Source: Isoetes taiwanensis
Lineage: Eukaryota; Streptophyta; Lycopodiopsida; Isoetales; Isoetaceae
NCBI GenBank assembly: GCA_021234155.1
Contig: JAJEKV010000057.1
Span: 4,249,821 to 4,313,820 of the forward strand
DNA: 64,000 nt
Reading direction: 5' to 3'
The notes under the pieces are model-generated. The model was not told the origin of the DNA. It made no database searches and saw nothing but the letters and a program-made list of their open reading frames with translations. Shown piece after piece: positions 9,690 to 60,886 of this stretch (positions are counted from its first letter, which is position 1; each line of letters opens with the position of its first letter). The position numbers and the translations under genes were made by a program.

Positions 9690-10323
9690 ACTGAAAATAG
9701 TGTAGCAAGGGCTTTGACTACATTGAACAAACTCTGCAAGGAAGGCAATTAGAGGAAGGGTTAGAAATTATAGAACAGCACCAGCTTCCCATATCAAGAG
9801 ATATCGCATATCACCTTTTGCTGGAGTGCACACGGAAGAAATGTCTGCATTGTGGATTACGAGTACATGCCCTTATGGTTGTCAATGGGCTAGATCCAAC
9901 TGCCGTTCTGGGGGACCATCTAATTCGGTTGTACTCCTCTTGTGGATGCTTGCCTGCAGCTGCACATGCATTGAACAAGGTCTTGCAACCTGGGATGCAT
10001 ACCTGGAGTTCAATAATTTCTGCCCATGCTAATCAAGGTCAAGGTAAGCCTTCAATAATTTCTGCCCATGCTAATCAAGGTCAAGGTAAGCCTGCACTTG
10101 AGCTCTATGGCAGAATGCAAATCTTGAATTTAGAAAATGATAGATATGTTTTTCTTGCTGCACTTAAAGCATGTACAAGTAATGCTGCACTAATACATGG
10201 ACGGCATGTCCATCAACAGGTCATAGAAAATGGCATGCACTTGGATAGTTTGTTAGGGAATGTCATTGTGGATATGGAGAAGACCCAACAATTGCTGAGC
10301 AATTTGAGGCTCAACAGCTGCTG
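9690..10323 (+). pseudogene. PLS-class pentatricopeptide-repeat (PPR) gene fragment
   Basis: The frame ending at 10323 reads like plant PPR repeats: 'LHCGLRVHALMVVNGLDP', 'LGDHLIRLYSSCGCL', 'ALELYGRMQ', 'FLAALKACTSNAALIHGRHV' and 'LLGNVIVDM', the order of P, L and S motifs in organelle RNA-editing PPR proteins. The leader 'LNKLCKEG' is in another frame and joins 'LEEGLEIIEQ' after a frameshift near 9742. A 42-bp segment (SIISAHANQGQGKP) is duplicated in tandem at 10009-10092. After GNVIVDM the similarity stops. With about four repeats, a frameshift and no E/DYW domain, it is a truncated remnant and probably not functional. Confidence 0.75.
10009..10092. repeat. 42-bp tandem duplication in the PPR fragment
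   Basis: Two identical copies of a 42-bp unit starting tcaataatttctgcccat. The duplication keeps the frame. Each copy ends in CAAGGTAAGCC, which also resembles a splice donor. Confidence 0.85.
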
Positions 10324-10329
10324 AGCAAT

Positions 10330-12727: not shown

Positions 12728-13566
12728 AAAACAGCTAAATCTTAGTTTTCCTCTATTTTCTTATATAATATATAATTGTCTCCTCCATAGAACGCTTCCC
12801 TGAGATTTTTTCCTTGTGAACTACCTGCAAGAGCGATCTATTCAGCAGACCCAGGCAGATCTACTTGCTACTTGATGATATATCATAAGGATAAGATTAA
12901 TTATGGGGCAAAACCAAAAGTTAGGTCAAGATTTAAGACCACTTAAAAATAGATGATGCCGGCTGAGAAGCTCTGTTATGCCCAATAAAATGAAAGCCAG
13001 GAGTGAAGAAAGAGCTCAGTCTCACTTTACTCTGCAATTCCAGTTTCATTTGTCATGTTCAAACCATGTAAGCCAGTTAGTATCCCTTCCACGTGGTTTA
13101 ATTTCATTTTCAGAATCTCAATTTACTTAGGTACATTTTGTTTTTTTGGTTGCCGGAAAGTTTCGTTACACGTCATTCTGCTCCCATATGCAATGAGATG
13201 CTGACACGTGTCCCTATTTCTATCCCTGAAAATGCCCTAAAGTTGTACTACATCAAGTTTTTTGTCTAGCAAGGTTGATTTCTAGAATGCCTTTCCATAA
13301 TGCAGTCCAGAATTTAGTTCAGAATGCAGACCAGAAATCCTGGAATTCATATTGTATTCGATCACATATTGAAATCAAACTGGATTCAAATTTATATCAA
13401 AATAAACTGCAGATTCATATCAAAAGTTTACAGTAGTAAAACAGACTTCAAATTCATATCAAAAGTTTACAGTAGCAGAATGATTTGAAGTTCTCAAAAC
13501 ACTCAAATAACAGCCAAAATTCTCACTGAATAACAAAAACTAAAAATTCAAGTTCATAAGGCCAAA
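12728..13566. other. Spacer downstream of the recombinase gene
   Basis: No gene recognised. It includes a short duplicated 'attcatatcaaaagtttacagtag' stretch at about 13411-13478 and presumably the recombinase 3' UTR. Confidence 0.45.
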
Positions 13567-15703
13567 CTATAAGATCCCATCACTTCGAATTATCTTCTTC
13601 ACAAGGTCTCCCAAGTCGAAACTGCCACCTCCAGGAAGAATGATACAATTGCTGAAGTTGCCACCTGAGATATTGGTAGAACCAATATCCATATTCAAGT
13701 TGAAGGCTCTCCTTAATTTGACATTCTGTCCAGCAAGCTCCTCTAAAGAAAGGTTATCAAAGAAGTCATCATCCAACTGACTAGAAGCTCGCGCAACTAC
13801 AGTTGTATCGTTCTTCACATCAGTCTGAACCGTCTCATTTAAAGAACTACTACCTTCAACCGCCTTCACAGTTTCGATTTCTGAATTCAGATTTCCTAAA
13901 GAAAGATAGGAATACATCAAAATGCATTCTAGATCATGAATCAAAAGAACAAAATAATTAAAATAAACACTTACCAGAATCAACAGGATTTTGTAGAACA
14001 TGGAATGAACCAGAATTCTGCTTCAAATCATAGTCACCTAATTCAGATTTGTACACGTCTTCAAACATTCGATGCGAACCATCGGCATTAAAAGGTTGTC
14101 CCACGATTGACATTGCAGCTTTAGCCTTGAGATCGATCGTTTTACCATACCTGTAACAAAGAATTAAAAACTAAAAATACAGCCAGAACTTAATAAACAA
14201 CAGAAAGTAGAAACTAACTAAGTAACTTATCTTTTATACGACTCGGGATTTCTATGACCAGTAATTGTCATCCCCACGTCAATAGGAACTTTGGCCCTAG
14301 CTAATCTGCTAACAACATAACTTCGGCCAGATTTTCCAGAGAACTTCCCTTCTACTCCAATACTACGCAGCATATACTTCATCCACCCCCCTAAAACTTT
14401 GGCAGAAACTCTATGTTTCTTATTGTACCATGCCTGTAACCAACACAAGGAATATGAAATCAAGATAAAAAAAACAAAAAACAGAAGTATACTTACATCG
14501 TCTCTTGGAGACACAATACACTCCATAAAAACAAATCTTTCCGCCTTCTCAAACTCATTATACACTGGAAGATGTTTCAATAGGCATTTGAAAGTAAAGA
14601 TGACATCCAGTTCAAAGCATTTGATTGGCACTCTAAAGCTTTCTTCTTGATATTTTTTCATCGACACATCATAGTTCTTACTTAATCTTTCACTGTATTC
14701 CAAACATTCAGCCCCATCTATATTCAGAATCTGAAAATCATCAACCAGTAACTTATAAAGCTCTTCTCTGCCTCTAATTGCAAAACGAGAGACACAATAG
14801 AACATAAAACGACGCTGCAATCCTCGGTTGCTATAAACAGAATGATCAACATCCATTAGTAAAGCTTGTTCAGTTGCAAAACTTATCTCCTCAGCTTTCT
14901 TCCTTTTTCCACAAACCCCAGGAGCCATTCTGGATCTTCTCATTGAAGCAATGCAAGCCTTTCTAGCGTTTGAGAAAATTGGACTCTCCCTAATATCAAA
15001 AGGTACTTCTTCCAAACCTGTTAAACCAATTCTGAGCCCATCTGATAATTGCCCCAAATTTCCTGAACATATCCTGCAATCTGAAACAAGAAACAACACA
15101 TTAGCAAAGAAAAAACAAAAGAAAGATAATATACAAATTTGTACTCACGTTTCAGTCGGGTACAGTCCACCTTTGATCTTACACACTTGTAACATAAATC
15201 TTTCAAGCATCCTAGCAAAATCACGCAGATCTAACTCTTCAATTTTTTTTGTCAAGTGGCAAACCTTGTTTGATCCTCCATGCATAAAACCTAGTTCTGG
15301 CCCATTCAATCTTATTAAATTTTCTATCAGCTTTATTAACTTCTCTCACGAGATCCTCATCAAGCTCCTAGAAGGCCACTGATTTTCCAGAACTGGTTTG
15401 CACAACATTCTCAGGCAGATTCTCCTTACTAGAATCACATGCAGAATCATATGCAAAGAGAGCAGGCATCTTTTCAATGTCATCAATGTACTCCTTCATT
15501 TCATCCTCTCCAAACTCTTTCGAAAGCAGAGCCTCAAAGTTGTCTTCATGATCTTCGTTATCTTGATCCAAGAATGCATCCACATGTCCCATTTCCGGTC
15601 CCATTTCCTGAGTGATGTTTAAAAGAAAGGGAGATTGCTGAGAAACACCATCCTCTTGAGCTTGAGACTGTATTCCAGCCATAGCAGACGGTATTCCAGC
15701 CAT
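13567..15703 (-). CDS. Crypton/DUF3504-type tyrosine recombinase, with breaks
   Basis: Five exons (15703-15149, 15073-14497, 14433-14231, 14150-13975, 13895-13567) join in phase to about 612 codons if one extra A is discounted. After an acidic N-terminal region comes a core-binding part ('WARTRFYAWRIKQG', 'DFARMLERFMLQVCK', 'GGLYPTET'), then a catalytic domain. The tyrosine-recombinase set is visible: Arg near residue 285 (FAIRGREEL), K-x-x-R at about 411-414 (FSGKSGRS), His-Arg at about 437 and the nucleophile Tyr at about 443 (TGHRNPESYKRY). 'CLEYSERLSKN' and the late 'NISGGNFSNCIIL' also match metazoan/protist DUF3504 proteins. Such enzymes move Crypton elements by DNA strand exchange; some are domesticated. 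Three breaks: a TAG stop (15370-15368), an A8 run that shifts frame (15250-15243) and an AT donor at 14230. No flanking target duplication was found. Family assignment is strong; activity is doubtful. Confidence 0.82.
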
Positions 15704-16229
15704 TCCAGACTAGCATAGCAAAAAAACCTCCAAAAAGATAAGGCCAAAGGATAAAAGGCAAGAAATTGCCACTAAATGTTGAGCCATTACAACCTTTTTC
15801 AACAGAAAGAAGCTTCAAAAACCTGTAAAAGGACAAGAAAGAATGTTAGACACCTAAAATCAAAAGCAAACAGAATAAAAAACAAGGAAACAAAAGATTA
15901 TTTACCTAAACTGCAAAAAGATGTCGTCCAAATGCAAGAAATCCGAACGGCGCCTTCAGATCCGCCAAATACATCAGCATTATTAGAAAACTATGCTGCC
16001 TATAGAAGAAAAATAGTCAAAAGCAAAAAAAAATCGCACAGACCAGTCTTTAAGCCGCCACAACTGCCTTCAAGCATGAACGCCGACCAGCGCCTTCAAG
16101 AAGATCACAAAAGAAAAGATCGGCTTCAAGCAATCGCCATAGCCGGATGCGGCCGGAGGCGGAAAAAAAAAGGAAACACAAAAAGCATGCTCAAACATTT
16201 TATACTGTGACGTGGCCGCTGACGTGGCA

Positions 16230-16440
16230 GAATGCATTTTCTGGCATGTCAAGGTAGCCGACGCGCGAATGCAAAGGCCCCTTGGGCCATTTTCTGGCAT
16301 GTCAAGGTGGCCGACGCGCAAAGGTGGCCGACGCTAAGAAGCCTTTAAAGCCCTTGGGCCATTTTACGGCATGTCAAAGGTGGCCTCCCAGGCCTACCAC
16401 GTTCCATGCCAGAAAATGGCCCAAGGGGCCTTTCCCTTAT
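16230..16440. repeat. Compound direct and inverted repeat (29-bp perfect palindrome arms)
   Basis: An exact 29-bp inverted repeat has arms at 16273-16301 (starting aaaggccccttgggccattt) and 16405-16433. The left part also holds direct copies of ttttctggcatgtcaaggt(g/a)gccgacgcgc separated by about 50 and 70 bp. The segment is GC-rich relative to its surroundings and lies about 0.55 kb upstream of the recombinase start. A fold-back mobile element or a promoter-proximal repeat are both possible. Confidence 0.75.
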
Positions 16441-16690
16441 TCTGAAGGGCAAACCCTTGGGAGTTGGGTTGGTGGAATATGTTGTTTTATGTTGTTGGAT
16501 GTACTACTTTACAGTGCAGATTGGGAATCCACTATGCATGATGTGACATTAGTGGATTGCTAGTTTGTCGTTGATCCTAGTCCGAAGAACGTTTGCTAGG
16601 GCTACCAAGATCTGGGCTTTCATCATGGAGCTCCATTATCGATGTACACACATTACATGTTCTGGCTCTTTCCCCAGCTCTTCCCGTCAT

Positions 16691-25598: not shown

Positions 25599-28500
25599 TC
25601 ACTTCAAGGATCTTCTTACTTCGTTATTCAATGAGAACTTACCAGTTTCTTTGGAATCAAGGGACCGTCTTTCTGGCTTGACAGTTTTGGTTCCTGATTT
25701 CGACTGCGCGTTGAACCTCTGAGATCGTGTGGGTTCGGAACTGATCTTACCACCATTGCTACCTGGAAGAGACAGCCTTCTTGGGGATGGTTCAGCATTA
25801 GAAATTTCATGGGAGATTGGCAAGGATAATCTTCTCTCTGGGCCATCAGAACTAGTCGACCCAGAAAACGAAAATCTCTTCTTTGCCACAATCTTCTGAG
25901 TCTCTGACTTGTCTTTCGGGCTTACTGTAAGACGAGCCTTGGCCTTGGATGATTCTGTTTTTGCCATATAGCTAGGAACATTCACATTTGGAGAGCGTTG
26001 TTGTATGATCTCAATTGGCTCAACTTTGGGAGATCCTAGAGGCCCAGGAGAAGCCTTCTTGGCCTTGCTTTCTTCTCTGGCTTTACCCCGTTTCTCTTCT
26101 TCTGCTTTTCCTTGTCGTTCTTCTTCTGCCTTGGTGACCCCGTTTGAATTTATCTTTTCTGACAAATATCTTGATGGACTTTCAACGTATTCATCAGAGA
26201 CTGCTATAGGGATTTTTTCAGCTGCTGGCAGCTGTGTCGGTTCGCAAACTTCATCCTGGGGAGACTCTTCTGCAGAAGAACTTTCTGATGCAGCTGGTAT
26301 AGACACATTCAATTCCGCATGCTTAGTTGTCTTTGTTGGGAATGACTTTTCAAGGGATGGATATGATAGATCATTTTCCTTGGGCGAGGATCTGACTTGT
26401 AAAATCTCTGACTCGCTGACAGAAGTAACAGTAACGTCCATATTGTCTTGAGAGCCTTCATTAATACTGCGCTCAGGAGCGTCAGCGTCCTCGAACAAGT
26501 AAGGAACTGCCCATGGCCGAGCCGCTGTCCAGCGCTCCATCCACCTCCATCCTGATTCTGGCATTGCATCTAGGTCCATGAACAATGGCCTTTGTGATGG
26601 GGCATACCACTGTAGCTATATTTTACAAGAAAGGGTGCATTAGGATAGACAAATCAAAATATCTTAATGTCAAAGTTACCTACCTGACGTTGTAGAGCAT
26701 AGGCCAAGCCCCTATTCTGACTCTTTGATCCGGTTCTTGAAGTCTGGTATTTACGACCACCAGTACTTACATGATAAGTTTCCTGATTTAACAAAAGCAC
26801 TCCATCAATCTTATCAACCATTAAGTCATAATGGTGTCCTTGTCAAAATTTAGATAACCTAAGCTAACACTTAATGCATCATAAAGAGTTCCCATTCTGT
26901 TTCTTTGAGTGAGACTTTAGTCCAAAATATTATTCTGTGCTTAAAACCGCCTTACAAATGAAATTGCCACTATAAGGCTCAGGAACCCTTACCACAATCT
27001 CCCATGTATCTGCCTGCTGTTGATGCAAGACCAGAATTCTTTCTTGGACGGCTCTTCCTATAGAAGATGTACGAACACGGTGACCCCGGTACAATGCTTG
27101 TGCTCTGACAATAGCTTGCACACATCGAAGTGAAACTGAAGCCTGCTTTCTCACAATATGTCCACGGACAAGGGCTTGCAGCCTGACTAGAGCTCTTAAG
27201 GACCGAAGTGCTCTTTGAGCCTACATGGTAGATCACAACAGATATATGAAATTCAAAATGTTAAGCATGCACACATGGCGTAGAAAATGAGAAAATCATG
27301 CCAGAATCACAATGCATCAAGGCGTTCATGACATTTTGCTTTAGGACAATACATGCATATAATCTAAGCGGCTTGTAGGATTTATTGTGCAGTAACCTAG
27401 CCATTGCGTGTGTAATTTTCTAGGGACAACAGAATAGCCGATAGGAAAATGGGTGGATGAAAAGTAATTCTAGCTGGGAATTGTCACTGGAAAGAAACTC
27501 TATCTTTGGTGCTGCATTAGACAGAATGTAGGGCAAGAAATACAAAACATGTACCAGATAGCAGCGAATAGCTGTTTGAATTCGGATAGCCGCCATTTCT
27601 TTCATCCTGTCATTATCAATGCATAGTTCAGCGTAACTGTTAACCAAAGAGTCATTCTCCTCAGGAACATGCAGCTCATTAAGGTTATGAAGATCTGTTT
27701 CTTCCCTTTGCTGATCTTGCCAGATATCTACGATTTCTGGAGTTGAGGCCTCCGCCTCTGGATGAGCATCTACCTTCCCTTGCAGAATTTGCTTTATATG
27801 CAACTCACTCATCTTATAGGCATCTTTTTCATTGTTCTGAACAAATTGATTTTCCTCCTCAAGTTTATGAGGTATCTCTATAGATGAAATGGTGGCTTCT
27901 GGCATATCTTGCTCTGTATCATGATCTTGGAATGATATGTTTTCATTGCTCTCTTCTTCCTCCTCCTCTTCCTCAACCTCACGTTCTTCAGCCTGTACAT
28001 CCTGTTGAAAAAGTAAAACCATCTAATTAAATGGCTCCGTATACCAATATTTTTTACTTTATTTAAAGTTCCATCCAAATGGAATAGTATATGACCCTAT
28101 TTTTTCTTACTATAGGGTCTTGGTTTTAAATCTATCAATAAGAAAGTGTGGCAATTAACATCTAATCTCAATTGAGCCAAACTTTTGCTCAAGATACATA
28201 AGGGCGAAGGATAGGACTGCACAAAGATGATGTTCATAAGCAGGGCTACAAATATAACAAACTGGAATGATGGCAAAGAGCACTAAGAGTTTCTAAACTT
28301 TTCTGGTACACTTAACATATATATATAGAGAAAGTAACAAATTTAAACCCTTTAAACGAGTAGTATTCAAATGTGAAATACAGAATTAATGATTGATTAA
28401 ATCTTACCAGATCTTGTTGTGTAGCTGTTTGAATCTTGATAGTTTCCCAGTCCTCTTTGAGATTTTCAGCTTGCTGTAACTCATAATTATTGGCAACGTA

Positions 28501-41239: not shown

Positions 41240-42303
41240 CATGTAGATAACCAAGCTGTGGTGATCAGGGTTCCAAGTATTATTCATGGACTTCCTCTTC
41301 TCTTTCTTATTGATTGTGGTAGTAGGCTGGCAAAGAAACTAGATTTGAACATGATTAGCCGGGACCCTAGATATGTGGAGTTGGCTGATGGCAAAATTAA
41401 GACTTCTTATGCTAAGGTAGACAATCTTGAATTCCAAGTAGGAGATCTTGAGTCTCACACTAGTTTTCAAGTATTGAGCCTAGGAAAGTATGATGCTATT
41501 CTAGGAATGTCATGGTTGAGGCCATATAAAGCTTGCATTGATTGCGGAGAGCAAATAGTTACATGCCAAAGTTCTAATGGAGATAAGTATGTGCTGAAAG
41601 GATTGCCTTCATCATTAGTGGTTACACCTTTGTCCCATAAAAGTTTTAAGAAACAGATTAAGAAGGGTTGCATCATTTTTGGGTACCGCAGAGTTACAAG
41701 AACAACCTATTGCTCCTGAGATCTAGAAAGTGTTGGATGCGTTTTCTGATGTGTTCCCTAAAGAATTAACAGAATTGCCTCCACATAGGATGGTAGATCA
41801 TGAGATAGAACTTGTTCCAGGGGCTGAACCTACATCAAGGCCACCATATAGATTTCATGCATTAGAGATGGCTGAATTGAAGAAACAATTAGCGAAATTA
41901 TTGGAACAAGGGTTCATATGGCTGAGTGTTTCTCCATTTGGGGCGCTAGTTTTGTTTGTGAAAAAGAAAGATGGGACATTAAGGTTGTGTATTGATTATC
42001 GCATGCTTAACCAGATTACAGTAAAGAATAGATATGCATTGCCTAGAGTTGATGAGCTATTTGACCAGTTGGGCCAAGCTAAGTATTTTACAAAAATTGA
42101 TCTACGATCTGGATATCATCAGATCCAGATCAAGGATACAGATATTTATAAGACTGCATTTAGGACACGCTATGGACATTACAAGTTTGTTGTAATGCCG
42201 TTTAGGTTGACAAATGCTCCCGCCATCTTTATGCGCCTAATGAATGAGATATTCTGACCTTTCTTGGATAAGTTTATATTGGTTTTCTTTGATGATATTT
42301 TGG
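41240..42303 (+). pseudogene. Protease and reverse transcriptase of element B (truncated)
   Basis: The protease part reads 'FLIDCGSRLAKKLDL', with Asp-Cys-Gly where Asp-Ser/Thr-Gly is usual, and 'YDAILGMSWLRPY'. A stop falls just before the RT part at about 41727. The RT reads '[20 protein letters not shown]', '[20 protein letters not shown]', '[16 protein letters not shown]' and '[15 protein letters not shown]'. A second stop follows 'LMNEIF', then 'FLDKFILVFFDDILV', where the coding similarity ends abruptly. Confidence 0.85.
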
Positions 42304-58451: not shown

Positions 58452-59075
58452 CTAATCCAGGAATGAAGATAGCATAATAATTGATTTTGCCGAGAAAATA
58501 TCAAGTCTTCTTGATATTGGCGGAAGGCTTTGCTTGCAGAACACAACTGATTTTTGCTGGATCCGTGGTGATGCCTTGCTTGCTGACCACATGCCCAAGA
58601 AAGACACCCGAAGTGACGCAGAAGGTACACTTTTCAGGATTGAAGCTGATGCCTGATTCATCACATTTTTTAAAGACAAGCTCTTGGAAAGGTGATCTTC
58701 TTCTGTGCTATAAGCCGAGAAGTGATCTTGAAAGACTTGAAGAAATGCATTTTCTTTTATGAATTCTTGAAATACTGAATGCATGATGCATTGAAAAGTA
58801 GAGGGCGAATTTGAAAGTCCAAATTGAACAACTTTGTAAGCAAAAGTGCCCCATAGTGTAGTGAATATGGTTTTGAATTGATCTTCAGAGCGAATGGATA
58901 TTAGATTGTAACTCGAAAAGCCATCCATAAAGGAATACATTCCATGGCCTACAACTTCTTCTAGGACTTGATCCGTGAAAAATAATGGAAAATGATTCCG
59001 CTTCGTAGCCTGGTTTAAATCCATGCAAACACAGAGCTTACCATTGTGCTTAAGAGCAATAACAATATGGCTCAC
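58452..59075 (-). pseudogene. Reverse transcriptase remnant of element E
   Basis: Minus strand: 'KHNGKLCVCMDLNQATKRNH', 'FPLFFTDQVLEEVVGHGMYS', 'FMDGFSSYNLISIRSEDQFK', 'TIFTTLWGTFAYKVVQFGLS', 'NSPSTFQC'. The catalytic YxDD is lost: the matching place reads VFQDHF. A long open frame remains, but the enzyme would be inactive. Confidence 0.85.
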
Positions 59076-60886
59076 CCATTCAGAATGTCTGACTTCATAA
59101 ATGAGACCGGCATCAAGAAGTTTATCGATTTCTGCTACTCGGTCATGGTAATTTGGGTTGAGCTTGCACTGTCGTTGCTAGGTGGGGCGGGAATAACGTT
59201 TGGCAGGGATTGTGAGTTTCCCTAATTCTTTCTTGATACCGCATAAATCCTTGCAGCTCCACGCAAAAATATGTTTGAACTTCTTGAAAAGTTTGACCGC
59301 CTTTTCTCGAAAATGTGAATAGAGACCCGCAGCCGGGCGAATGGGTTGATTTTGGACCAAATCGAGAATCTCTGGAGTTTGGATATAGGGGATGACCTCA
59401 GCATCCGACATTGATGAGCAGGAGGTTGGAGGAGAACAAGTGGAGGTGCACTTGTAGTGGTAAAAACAAAGGCATTGGAGTCGGATCAACCAGAGGTTGG
59501 TGCGTAAGCGTGGTAGTATCCGCAGGAGGACCATCATGATATGGGTCATCCTGAGGGAATACTAGGTGAATTTGATGACAAAGCGCCAGATAAAGATCAA
59601 GCAGGGTGGCTATGGCATTGTACTGATCTAAGGTCATGTCGCCCGACGGATCTGCATATTCAGGATAAGCTGATAGGGGTAGTTCAGTAGCAGGAGATGT
59701 CTGACAAGGAGGGTTTAGCATGTTCTACAGCAATAAGTTGACATGTTTCCAGATCCATTGTGGTAGTTAAGTGACCATCCGTGATCACGAGTTGATCAGT
59801 AGCCCAATAATGGATACTCTTAGCTTGACAAAGGAAAGGTCTACCAACAAGCATTTCATAATCACCGGATCTTCACCTGCTCGCCAAACACCAAACTCAA
59901 GTGGAAACTTGAGATCTCTAATGCTAATAGTCAGTTGAGAAGTGATGCCTTGTGGCCATGTGATATGGCCATTGGTAAATTTGATATCATAGGATGCACG
60001 ATAGTTTCTTAATGCCTAATTGTTGTCGTAGTATGTCTAAGATAAGATTGACTGCATTGCCTCCATCGATTTGTACATGATTCATGAGCACCCACCGTGG
60101 CGTGCACCGTGGGGATGGAAGTGGCCACGGCTCACACAAAAATAGCAGGCAACGATAACTATTCCCGAAGAGCTGGGAAAAGTTTGAGAATAGTTGCCAA
60201 ACTGTGGAATCTTGATTTTCACAAGTTCCTCTTGAAGTTCCAGAGGAATAGCAGTGGCGGCGCATGTAGTAGCCACTGGGGCTGGTTCTGTGGGTAAAGA
60301 GGCAGCCACTTCTTAGACTCCGACTTCAGCAACAATATTGTGATATGTACAAGTGCATGGAGGTGGCATGGTGGCAGAAGAGTCAGGCCCCCGGGTCTGA
60401 GCACGGGTGGTAGCATGGACATTGGCAAGTGTTCATCCTTCCGCAGCTTGCATGAGGCGAAGAATATTTTGTCAAACTTTAGGCATGACATGTGGCATGA
60501 GGTGGTAAAGATCAGACGCAAAATGAAGAGATTTGGGAGTAGAACTTGCTAGAACAATGCTAACCATGTAAGCAGGCCGTGTGTCCTGAGGTATAAGGTG
60601 ATAAGGTCGTGTACCATGGGTTTGGCATGACATTAGGCCTACCAAATTGGAATGTTGAACCAGAGGATTTAAGGCCTGATAAATTCTCTCTTGAGCTTAT
60701 TGATCTAAGATGACCTATGAAGTGGTGTGTGTCGGTGGTGGCTGTTGCTGGGCTCATGGCGGTTTCTTTAGCGTGGGTCGGGGACTTTGTTTACCATTGG
60801 CTACCCATAGTTGATAGGCAGTGAGGCGGACGGAAGCGGTTTGATTGGTTCGTGGTAACTAGACTTGAACTTGAGGGGGTTGAGGG

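What the first reader, a model, noticed from the sequence alone, without database searches (positions are those of the whole stretch)
13567..15703. Spliced Crypton/DUF3504-type tyrosine recombinase gene in a plant genome
Five exons join in perfect phase and give a core-binding region plus a catalytic domain with Arg, K-x-x-R, His-Arg and a Tyr nucleophile (TGHRNPESYKRY). Crypton-type and DUF3504 recombinases are best known from fungi, oomycetes and animals; to my knowledge they are not a standard part of described plant mobile DNA. This could be a plant Crypton lineage, a domesticated recombinase, or a horizontal arrival.
Basis: partly seen in the sequence, partly recalled or inferred. Interest (0 to 1): 0.85.

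Follow-up and report, generated by a model that had tools for sequence, protein, structure and literature searches.

The report
Tyrosine-recombinase transposon family in quillwort
This is a dead copy of a large, recently mobile family of plant jumping genes that move with a tyrosine recombinase, insert without duplicating the target, and carry inside themselves an inverted copy of the joint their two ends would make in a circle, an arrangement known from certain retrotransposons but found here without a detectable reverse transcriptase.

Summary
The gene is real: a spliced tyrosine recombinase (YR) on the minus strand, but the window copy is a broken transposon (13155-16442). The genome, very probably Isoetes taiwanensis, gave 154 exon-2 matches, a capped count. 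Eight of nine aligned members match Phage_integrase; R and K-x-x-R are invariant, and dN/dS shows purifying selection. Both ends were read in 18 elements (not a random sample). Insertion makes no target-site duplication: empty sites were found for 10 of 18 (8 of 16 by genome search, 2 in neighbouring repeat units). Targets read C|RRAA, like the element's own left end. Design: left end A; near the right end A' (inverted A), then a terminal hairpin B-loop-B'. A' is recognisable in 17 of 18 elements (lost in the window copy). The internal A'B is an inverted copy of the circle junction B'A in 15 of 15 elements compared. This is the logic of the DIRS internal complementary region, yet six frames of one complete element gave no reverse-transcriptase hit. 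Elements of about 350 bp keep the same parts. Cryptons are described as lacking terminal inverted repeats and DIRS as having RT, so this fits neither. Integration by YR recombination is well supported; the role of the internal copy is inferred.

The parts
13155..16442 (-). whole transposon copy (3288 bp), gene on minus strand; broken copy
   Evidence: similarity to sister copies stops near these points; ends read in 18 elements
13154..13154 (.). C of the target, constant just outside the left end
   Evidence: 22 of 22 left flanks end in C
13155..13182 (+). left terminus A (GGAAAGTTTCGTTA...)
   Evidence: inverted copy A' present near the right end in sister copy L002 and others; A' itself is lost in the window copy (score 8 of 28)
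15149..15703 (-). exon 1 (N-terminal and core-binding region); carries a stop at 15368-15370 and a frameshift in the T-run 15243-15250
   Evidence: other copies read on in one frame
14497..15080 (-). exon 2 (box-I Arg); 8-nt gap near 15034 against L002
14231..14433 (-). exon 3 (K-S-G-R and T-G-H-R); splice donor lost at 14229-14230
13975..14150 (-). exon 4 (begins with the predicted catalytic Tyr)
13567..13895 (-). exon 5 (C-terminal region)
16273..16301 (+). hairpin arm B, exact complement of 16405-16433
   Evidence: DNA fold z -6.5
16405..16442 (+). hairpin arm B' and right terminus ...CCTTTCCCTTATTC

Best explanation
The window holds a decayed copy of a tyrosine-recombinase DNA transposon. 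SHOWN: the family is multicopy; its YR gene has been kept by purifying selection; ends are sharp; insertion adds no target duplication and, in the gap-free cases, removes no target base; the left junction keeps the target's bases and the right junction carries the element's, so the crossover maps just after a C; targets C|RRAA resemble the element's own left end C|G(G/T)AAAG; 15 of 15 elements compared carry an inverted internal copy (A'B) of the junction their ends would form in a circle (B'A), and B/B' forms a strong hairpin. INFERRED: the YR excises the element as a circle with junction ...CTTTCCCTTATAC|GGAAAG... and recombines it into C|RRAA sites. The internal copy most likely acts as a splint: in a single strand, A pairs with A' and B with B', so the two ends lie edge to edge as a duplex recombination site, as proposed for the DIRS internal complementary region, but here without a detected reverse transcriptase. 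Its altered core would keep it from being used as a crossover site itself. The confidence given is for YR-driven conservative integration; for the splint alone I would say about 0.4.
For: YR: Phage_integrase in 8 of 9 members, PHROG integrase in 7 of 9, best 2.2e-11, over the Pfam cut-off in L036-L038. R122 and K248-S249-x-R251 invariant in 9 aligned members. Selection: of 13 pairs, 9 computable, 8 of these with dN/dS 0.03-0.13. Copies: 154 matches, capped. Ends: 18 elements. Target: left -1 C 22 of 22; right +3 A 35 of 42, +4 A 34 of 42. Empty sites: 8 of 16 by genome search, aligned, plus neighbouring repeat units at L023 and L032. Internal copy: 15 of 15 compared, of 18. Co-variation: own A/A' and B/B' pairings beat all 20000 permutations over 9 subfamily representatives. 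Hairpin z -13.5 in L023, -6.5 in the window. Elements of 346-356 bp keep A, A'B and B'; two other copies match L051 at 100% as rounded, so recent movement. No Pfam hit in six frames of the complete L023 element; the same library finds RT in L035 at 2.6e-16.
Against: No circle, excision or activity was observed. DUF3504 and PF00589 scores are weak for most members, and a profile search of solved structures found no recombinase. The six-frame scan of L023 at E 0.1 also missed the element's own exon-split YR, so a split or very divergent RT could be missed too. One clade (L036-L038) has exons 2-5 fused, which could reflect passage through RNA. The His is Gln in L031 and L032 and Arg in L027. Of the first 33 sequences scanned, 19 (several overlapping) showed A/A' pairs above threshold; the rest did not, some because they are truncated or cut by the locus edge, not each checked; L011 has A' but no hairpin after it. 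A' is weak in L004 (13 of 28) and lost in the window. Some target sites are not independent. A/A' and B/B' likeness could be kept by gene conversion between arms rather than by function.
Confidence: 0.85

Rival explanations
1. Internal A'B is an accessory recombinase-binding (arm-type) site or regulator of excision on ordinary double-stranded DNA; no single-strand splint is formed and the element is simply a Crypton with extra binding sites.
For: Seamless integration just after C needs only double-stranded circle recombination; the internal core is one base shorter in 14 of 15 elements, as expected for a bound but uncut site.
Against: Complementarity runs over about 57-60 nt with co-varying sequence among subfamilies and is seen in L037 (37% protein identity) with unrelated end sequence, more than a binding site would seem to need.
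Confidence: 0.4
2. The elements are RT-less derivatives of a DIRS-type retrotransposon, moved in trans by its reverse transcriptase; the internal complementary region is inherited from it.
For: The ICR logic matches DIRS1; the same genome has RT+RNase-H-like+YR elements (L033-L035); one clade of this family has lost introns 2-4 (L036-L038).
Against: No RT hit in the one complete element scanned; the two long terminal motifs are absent, with one mismatch allowed, from the three RT loci, and L033 has a direct rather than an inverted repeat; introns sit at matching places in divergent subfamilies, unlike copies made from spliced RNA; YR kept under selection.
Confidence: 0.12
3. A domesticated host gene derived from a recombinase (DUF3504 type).
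For: Weak DUF3504 likeness.
Against: Multicopy, with transposon ends, empty sites and near-identical recent copies; window copy broken; catalytic residues kept.
Confidence: 0.01
4. A DDE-transposase or Helitron-type element that happens to carry or adjoin a recombinase gene.
For: Inverted repeats resemble TIRs; a terminal hairpin and lack of target duplication resemble Helitrons.
Against: No target duplication, no other Pfam domain in six frames of L023; insertion after C, not between A and T as in Helitrons.
Confidence: 0.02

Closest known systems
Crypton transposons (CryptonF/S/A/I)
   Same: Encode a YR and, as far as tested, no RT or DDE transposase; non-autonomous derivatives occur
   Different: Cryptons are described with neither terminal inverted repeats nor long direct repeats, only 4-6 bp direct repeats (none in animals), and without land plants in the host table (a Mariner-fused MarCry element with TIRs is the exception in that paper); these have inverted ends, a terminal hairpin and an internal inverted copy of the circle junction
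DIRS1-like retrotransposons
   Same: Internal complementary region made of two adjacent parts, one complementary to each end; integration by a YR at a very short shared sequence, no target duplication
   Different: No RT detected in the element scanned; the two ends are not inverted repeats of each other beyond about 6 nt; gene has introns; [quoted passage not shown]
PAT/Ngaro-like YR retrotransposons (here L033-L035 as internal comparator)
   Same: YR family
   Different: RT plus RNase-H-like domain, direct repeat in L033
Integron attC sites (recalled, no call)
   Same: YR recombination at a folded single-strand hairpin with a precise one-point crossover
   Different: Bacterial; no homology shown; resemblance of mechanism only

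Membership tests
Crypton | encodes a tyrosine recombinase with catalytic residues and no RT/DDE | tested here: met
   YR; no other domain in six frames of one complete element, L023, a scan that also missed the split YR itself
Crypton | no terminal inverted repeats | tested here: not met
   A/A' inverted repeats and B/B' hairpin
Crypton | 4-6 bp direct repeats at both termini | tested here: inconclusive
   only C is shared by all; left flanks share 51 of 108 bases with their own right-end hexamer (18 of them that C) against 30.3 by chance; full 6 bp only in L025 of 18
Crypton | DUF3504-like YR | tested here: inconclusive
   5 of 9 members, best E 0.014, below cut-off; distant relatives L087/L088 pass it
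DIRS | reverse transcriptase and RNase H | tested here: not met
   six frames of L023 without hits; positive control; only one element scanned
DIRS | internal complementary region matching both ends, adjacent at a circular junction | tested here: met
   15 of 15 elements compared, 49-54 identical of 59-61 columns; 3 of 18 left out
DIRS | terminal repeats inverted relative to each other | tested here: not met
   left end A and right end B' share only GGAAAG/CTTTCC or less at the extremes, by eye
DIRS | no target-site duplication | tested here: met
   empty sites
DIRS | RNA intermediate | not testable with these tools
   introns kept in most subfamilies seen argue against spliced RNA only; L036-L038 lack introns 2-4
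DUF3504 domesticated gene | single-copy host gene that lost catalytic residues | tested here: not met
TIR/DDE transposon | target-site duplication | tested here: not met

The most novel reading that the evidence does not exclude
A separate order of land-plant transposons in which a recombinase alone, with a self-complementary internal copy of the circle junction, moves the element through a folded single strand whose two ends are splinted together. It would be a living intermediate between Cryptons and DIRS and would mean that the DIRS internal complementary region arose before, and independently of, reverse transcription.
Probability: 0.4. Interest if true: 0.92.

Novelty: new variant of a known kind. 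Interest (0 to 1): 0.8.

Why it matters
YR transposons are rarely reported in land plants: one review says Cryptons are not described in Arabidopsis and another omits DIRS from land plants, though a 2015 survey lists Crypton in all groups, land plants included. Here a large, recently mobile family has empty sites that give its integration to the base. Its ends join two designs so far described apart: Crypton (YR, no RT) and DIRS (YR, RT, internal complementary region). That makes the origin of DIRS ends directly testable, and short elements of about 350 bp offer a small substrate for a recombination assay in plants.

Tried and rejected
Contamination: rejected (copies spread over many contigs, plant genes in the window, GC within the window's range). 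Domesticated gene: rejected. DDE or Helitron mechanism: rejected. PDB profile search: no recombinase hit, one chance-level carboxypeptidase match at E 0.16. Viral and prokaryotic collections: no confirmed relatives of 151 and 25 pattern matches. An empty site for the window copy was sought and not found among 40 scored of 1073 candidates. No tree was built: no named eukaryotic YR set was at hand. tRNA scan of the window: none. Right-end rows dropped before the count: L060 and L074 (flanks like L059), L046, L057, L058, L062, L067, L071 (match stopped short of the end). Elements left out by me from the junction count: WIN, L004, L006. L006 was also outside the A'/B length filter. In one search L006 was oriented the wrong way round; one search has it right. 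A first right-end anchor search picked wrong places in several loci; one search replaced it by coordinates. One literature search was too loose to be useful (57,142 papers).

Full report
What was checked. The minus strand from 15703 to 13567 does encode a spliced protein with the marks of a tyrosine recombinase (YR): FAIRG (box-I Arg), K-S-G-R, T-G-H-R and a Tyr nine residues after the His, split by an intron just before the Tyr (the YR boxes are recalled). Joined pieces hit Phage_integrase at E 5e-4, below the curated cut-off. Against sister copies the window copy is broken: an in-frame stop at 15368-15370, a frameshift in the T-run 15243-15250, an 8-nt gap near 15034 and a lost donor at 14229-14230. 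The window assembly (1,658,258,908 bases, 1110 contigs) matches the published Isoetes taiwanensis assembly (1658.30 Mb, 204 scaffolds plus 909 contigs; passages of PMC8566536); the species is my inference from that. That paper's main text has no occurrence of 'Crypton' or 'DIRS'.

A large family. Exon 2 alone gave 154 matches (1580 candidates, 150 scored); some copies may give two pieces. Nine members aligned, eight of them at 37-76% identity to the first, share invariant R122 and K248-S249-x-R251. The His is kept in 8 of these 9 (Gln in L032); in the wider set it is also Gln in L031 and Arg in L027. The Tyr is present in the 8 of 9 members whose exon 4 is in the alignment. Eight of nine match Phage_integrase (best 4.9e-8), five of nine match DUF3504 only weakly (best 0.014), seven of nine match a PHROG integrase (best 2.2e-11); L036, L037 and L038 pass the Phage_integrase cut-off. 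A profile search of solved structures found no recombinase. Of 13 exon-2 pairs, 9 gave a finite dN/dS: eight between 0.03 and 0.13, one 0.87 in a nearly identical pair; four were saturated. Pattern-based scans found no relative in viral or prokaryotic contigs.

The ends. Sister copies stop being alike at sharp points. Both ends were read in 18 elements, chosen because their ends could be seen: 14 long (3.07-3.56 kb) and 4 short (346-356 bp). The left end begins G(G/T)AAA after a C; the right end is CTTTCCCTTAT(A/C/T)C in 14 of 18 and a variant of it in L025, L026, L031 and L032. Of 22 left flanks all 22 end in C; of 42 right flanks 35 have A at +3 and 34 have A at +4, so the target C|RRAA looks like the element's own left end C|G(G/T)AAAG. 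In two right-end loci (L064, L070), and perhaps a third (L071, not in the count), the flank itself reads like the left end of another element (by eye). L040 and L042 share a repeat. So the sites are not all independent.

Empty sites. Joined flanks of 16 elements were searched in the genome; for 8 a match spans the joint (L024, L003, L018, L016, L021, L025, L004, L026), L024 (three places) and L003 at 100%. Aligned, six of the eight show no gap within 10 nt of the joint; L004 and L026 have 1-nt gaps and mismatches nearby. L023 and L032 carry an unfilled repeat unit beside the insertion (37 and 31 aligned columns); L032 has a 1-nt gap at the joint. So there is no target duplication, and in the gap-free cases no loss. 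The left junction keeps the target's bases and the right junction keeps the element's, so the crossover lies just after the C. This speaks against DDE-type transposition and is what a YR would give. The window copy's own empty site was not found.

The internal copy. The left end A (about 28 bp) reappears inverted (A') near the right end, followed at once by a hairpin B-loop-B' that ends the element. Among the 18 elements A' scores 19-27 of 28 in 16, 13 in L004 and 8 (lost) in the window copy. A'B is the reverse complement of B'A, the junction the two ends would form in a circle: in 15 of 15 elements compared (WIN, L004 and L006 left out) 49-54 of 59-61 aligned columns agree. At the core the internal copy is one base shorter in 14 of the 15, with changed letters beside it. 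Across nine subfamily representatives the sum of matches of each A to its own A', and of each B to its own B', was reached by none of 20000 permutations. The hairpin folds with z -13.5 in L023 and -6.5 in the window. L037 (37% identity to the first aligned member) has the same design with unrelated letters, though its ends were not checked against a sister copy; L027, L029 and L030 (39-40% in exon 2) have inverted ends, and L027 and L030 a hairpin, of yet other sequence. Of the first 33 sequences (32 loci and the window, several overlapping) 19 showed A/A' above threshold and 14 did not; L011 has A' but no hairpin after it. Elements of about 350 bp keep A, A'B and B' with under 200 bp between; one such family gave 40 scored places of 372 candidates, two of them besides L051 itself at 100% as rounded. 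The family has moved recently.

What it is. The internal complementary region of DIRS1-like retrotransposons is described as two adjacent parts, one complementary to each end, meeting at a circular junction, with integration by recombination at a 3-bp identity and no target duplication (passages of PMC3266345). These elements share that logic, but no RT was found: the six frames of the complete L023 element, scanned in pieces at E 0.1, gave no Pfam hit, while the same library finds RT in L035 at 2.6e-16. That scan also missed the element's own exon-split YR, so it excludes an ordinary intact RT, not a shattered one; other complete elements were not scanned this way. Cryptons are described as having neither terminal inverted repeats nor long direct repeats, with 4-6 bp terminal direct repeats, none in animal Cryptons, and a host table without land plants (PMC3212892, abstract, passages and sections 5, 8, 17). 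So the family works like a Crypton in its enzyme, like DIRS in its ends, and meets the full definition of neither. The idea of Poulter and Butler that DIRS arose from a Crypton plus a Gypsy RT is quoted in PMC6681497 (passages).

How it most likely works. Shown: the junctions and the target. Inferred: a circle intermediate; YR cutting at C|G; the internal copy as a splint that brings the two ends of a single strand together as a duplex site. The chief rival is that A'B is only an extra recombinase-binding site on ordinary duplex DNA; junction data cannot separate the two. A trans-acting RT is less likely because introns are kept at matching places in divergent subfamilies and the RT-bearing YR loci found here lack the two long terminal motifs; against this, the L036-L038 clade has lost introns 2-4.

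Novelty. A search for 'Crypton' with 'Isoetes' gave 0 papers. Searches on Crypton with land plants (20 of 20 listed), with tyrosine recombinase, transposon and Selaginella (30 of 57 listed), with internal complementary region, inverted terminal repeats and DIRS (13 of 13) and with plant genomes, hairpin and inverted repeats (15 of 191) listed none whose title or shown abstract describes such an element; I saw listings and abstract starts only, plus passages of nine papers. A 2015 survey lists Crypton in all groups, land plants included (PMC4438587 passages), so 'first Crypton in plants' is not claimed. The library lacks most subscription journals, and Repbase was not available.

Noticed in passing
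L033, L034, L035 (G000 C1031, C1030, C1078): DIRS/Ngaro-type retrotransposons with reverse transcriptase, RNase-H-like and YR reading frames; a 39-bp exact direct repeat in L033. A 2022 review leaves DIRS out of land plants.
   Followed up: partly
L049, L051, L053, L055: Non-autonomous elements of 346-356 bp with the same ends; L051 has two further copies that match at 100% as reported, so very recent movement.
   Followed up: yes
L036-L038: A clade at 37-38% identity with exons 2-5 fused in one reading frame; L037 keeps the A...A'B-loop-B' design with unrelated sequence.
   Followed up: partly
L087, L088 (G000 C31, C606): Loci over the DUF3504 cut-off are distant relatives of this family around the box-I Arg.
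   Followed up: partly
internal site of 15 elements: The internal copy of the junction is one base shorter at the core in 14 of 15, and several elements have one extra base in A' against A, as if a bulge were kept.
   Followed up: no
L064, L070, perhaps L071: Right end of one element seems to abut the left end of another: insertion into or beside an existing element end (read by eye).
   Followed up: no
window 41727-42257 and 58452-59177: Reverse-transcriptase fragments of other retrotransposons (RVT_1).
   Followed up: no
window 25599-26615 and 9701-10324: DUF4005 protein (IQD-like by recall) and a PPR-like fragment just below cut-off: ordinary plant genes beside the element.
   Followed up: no
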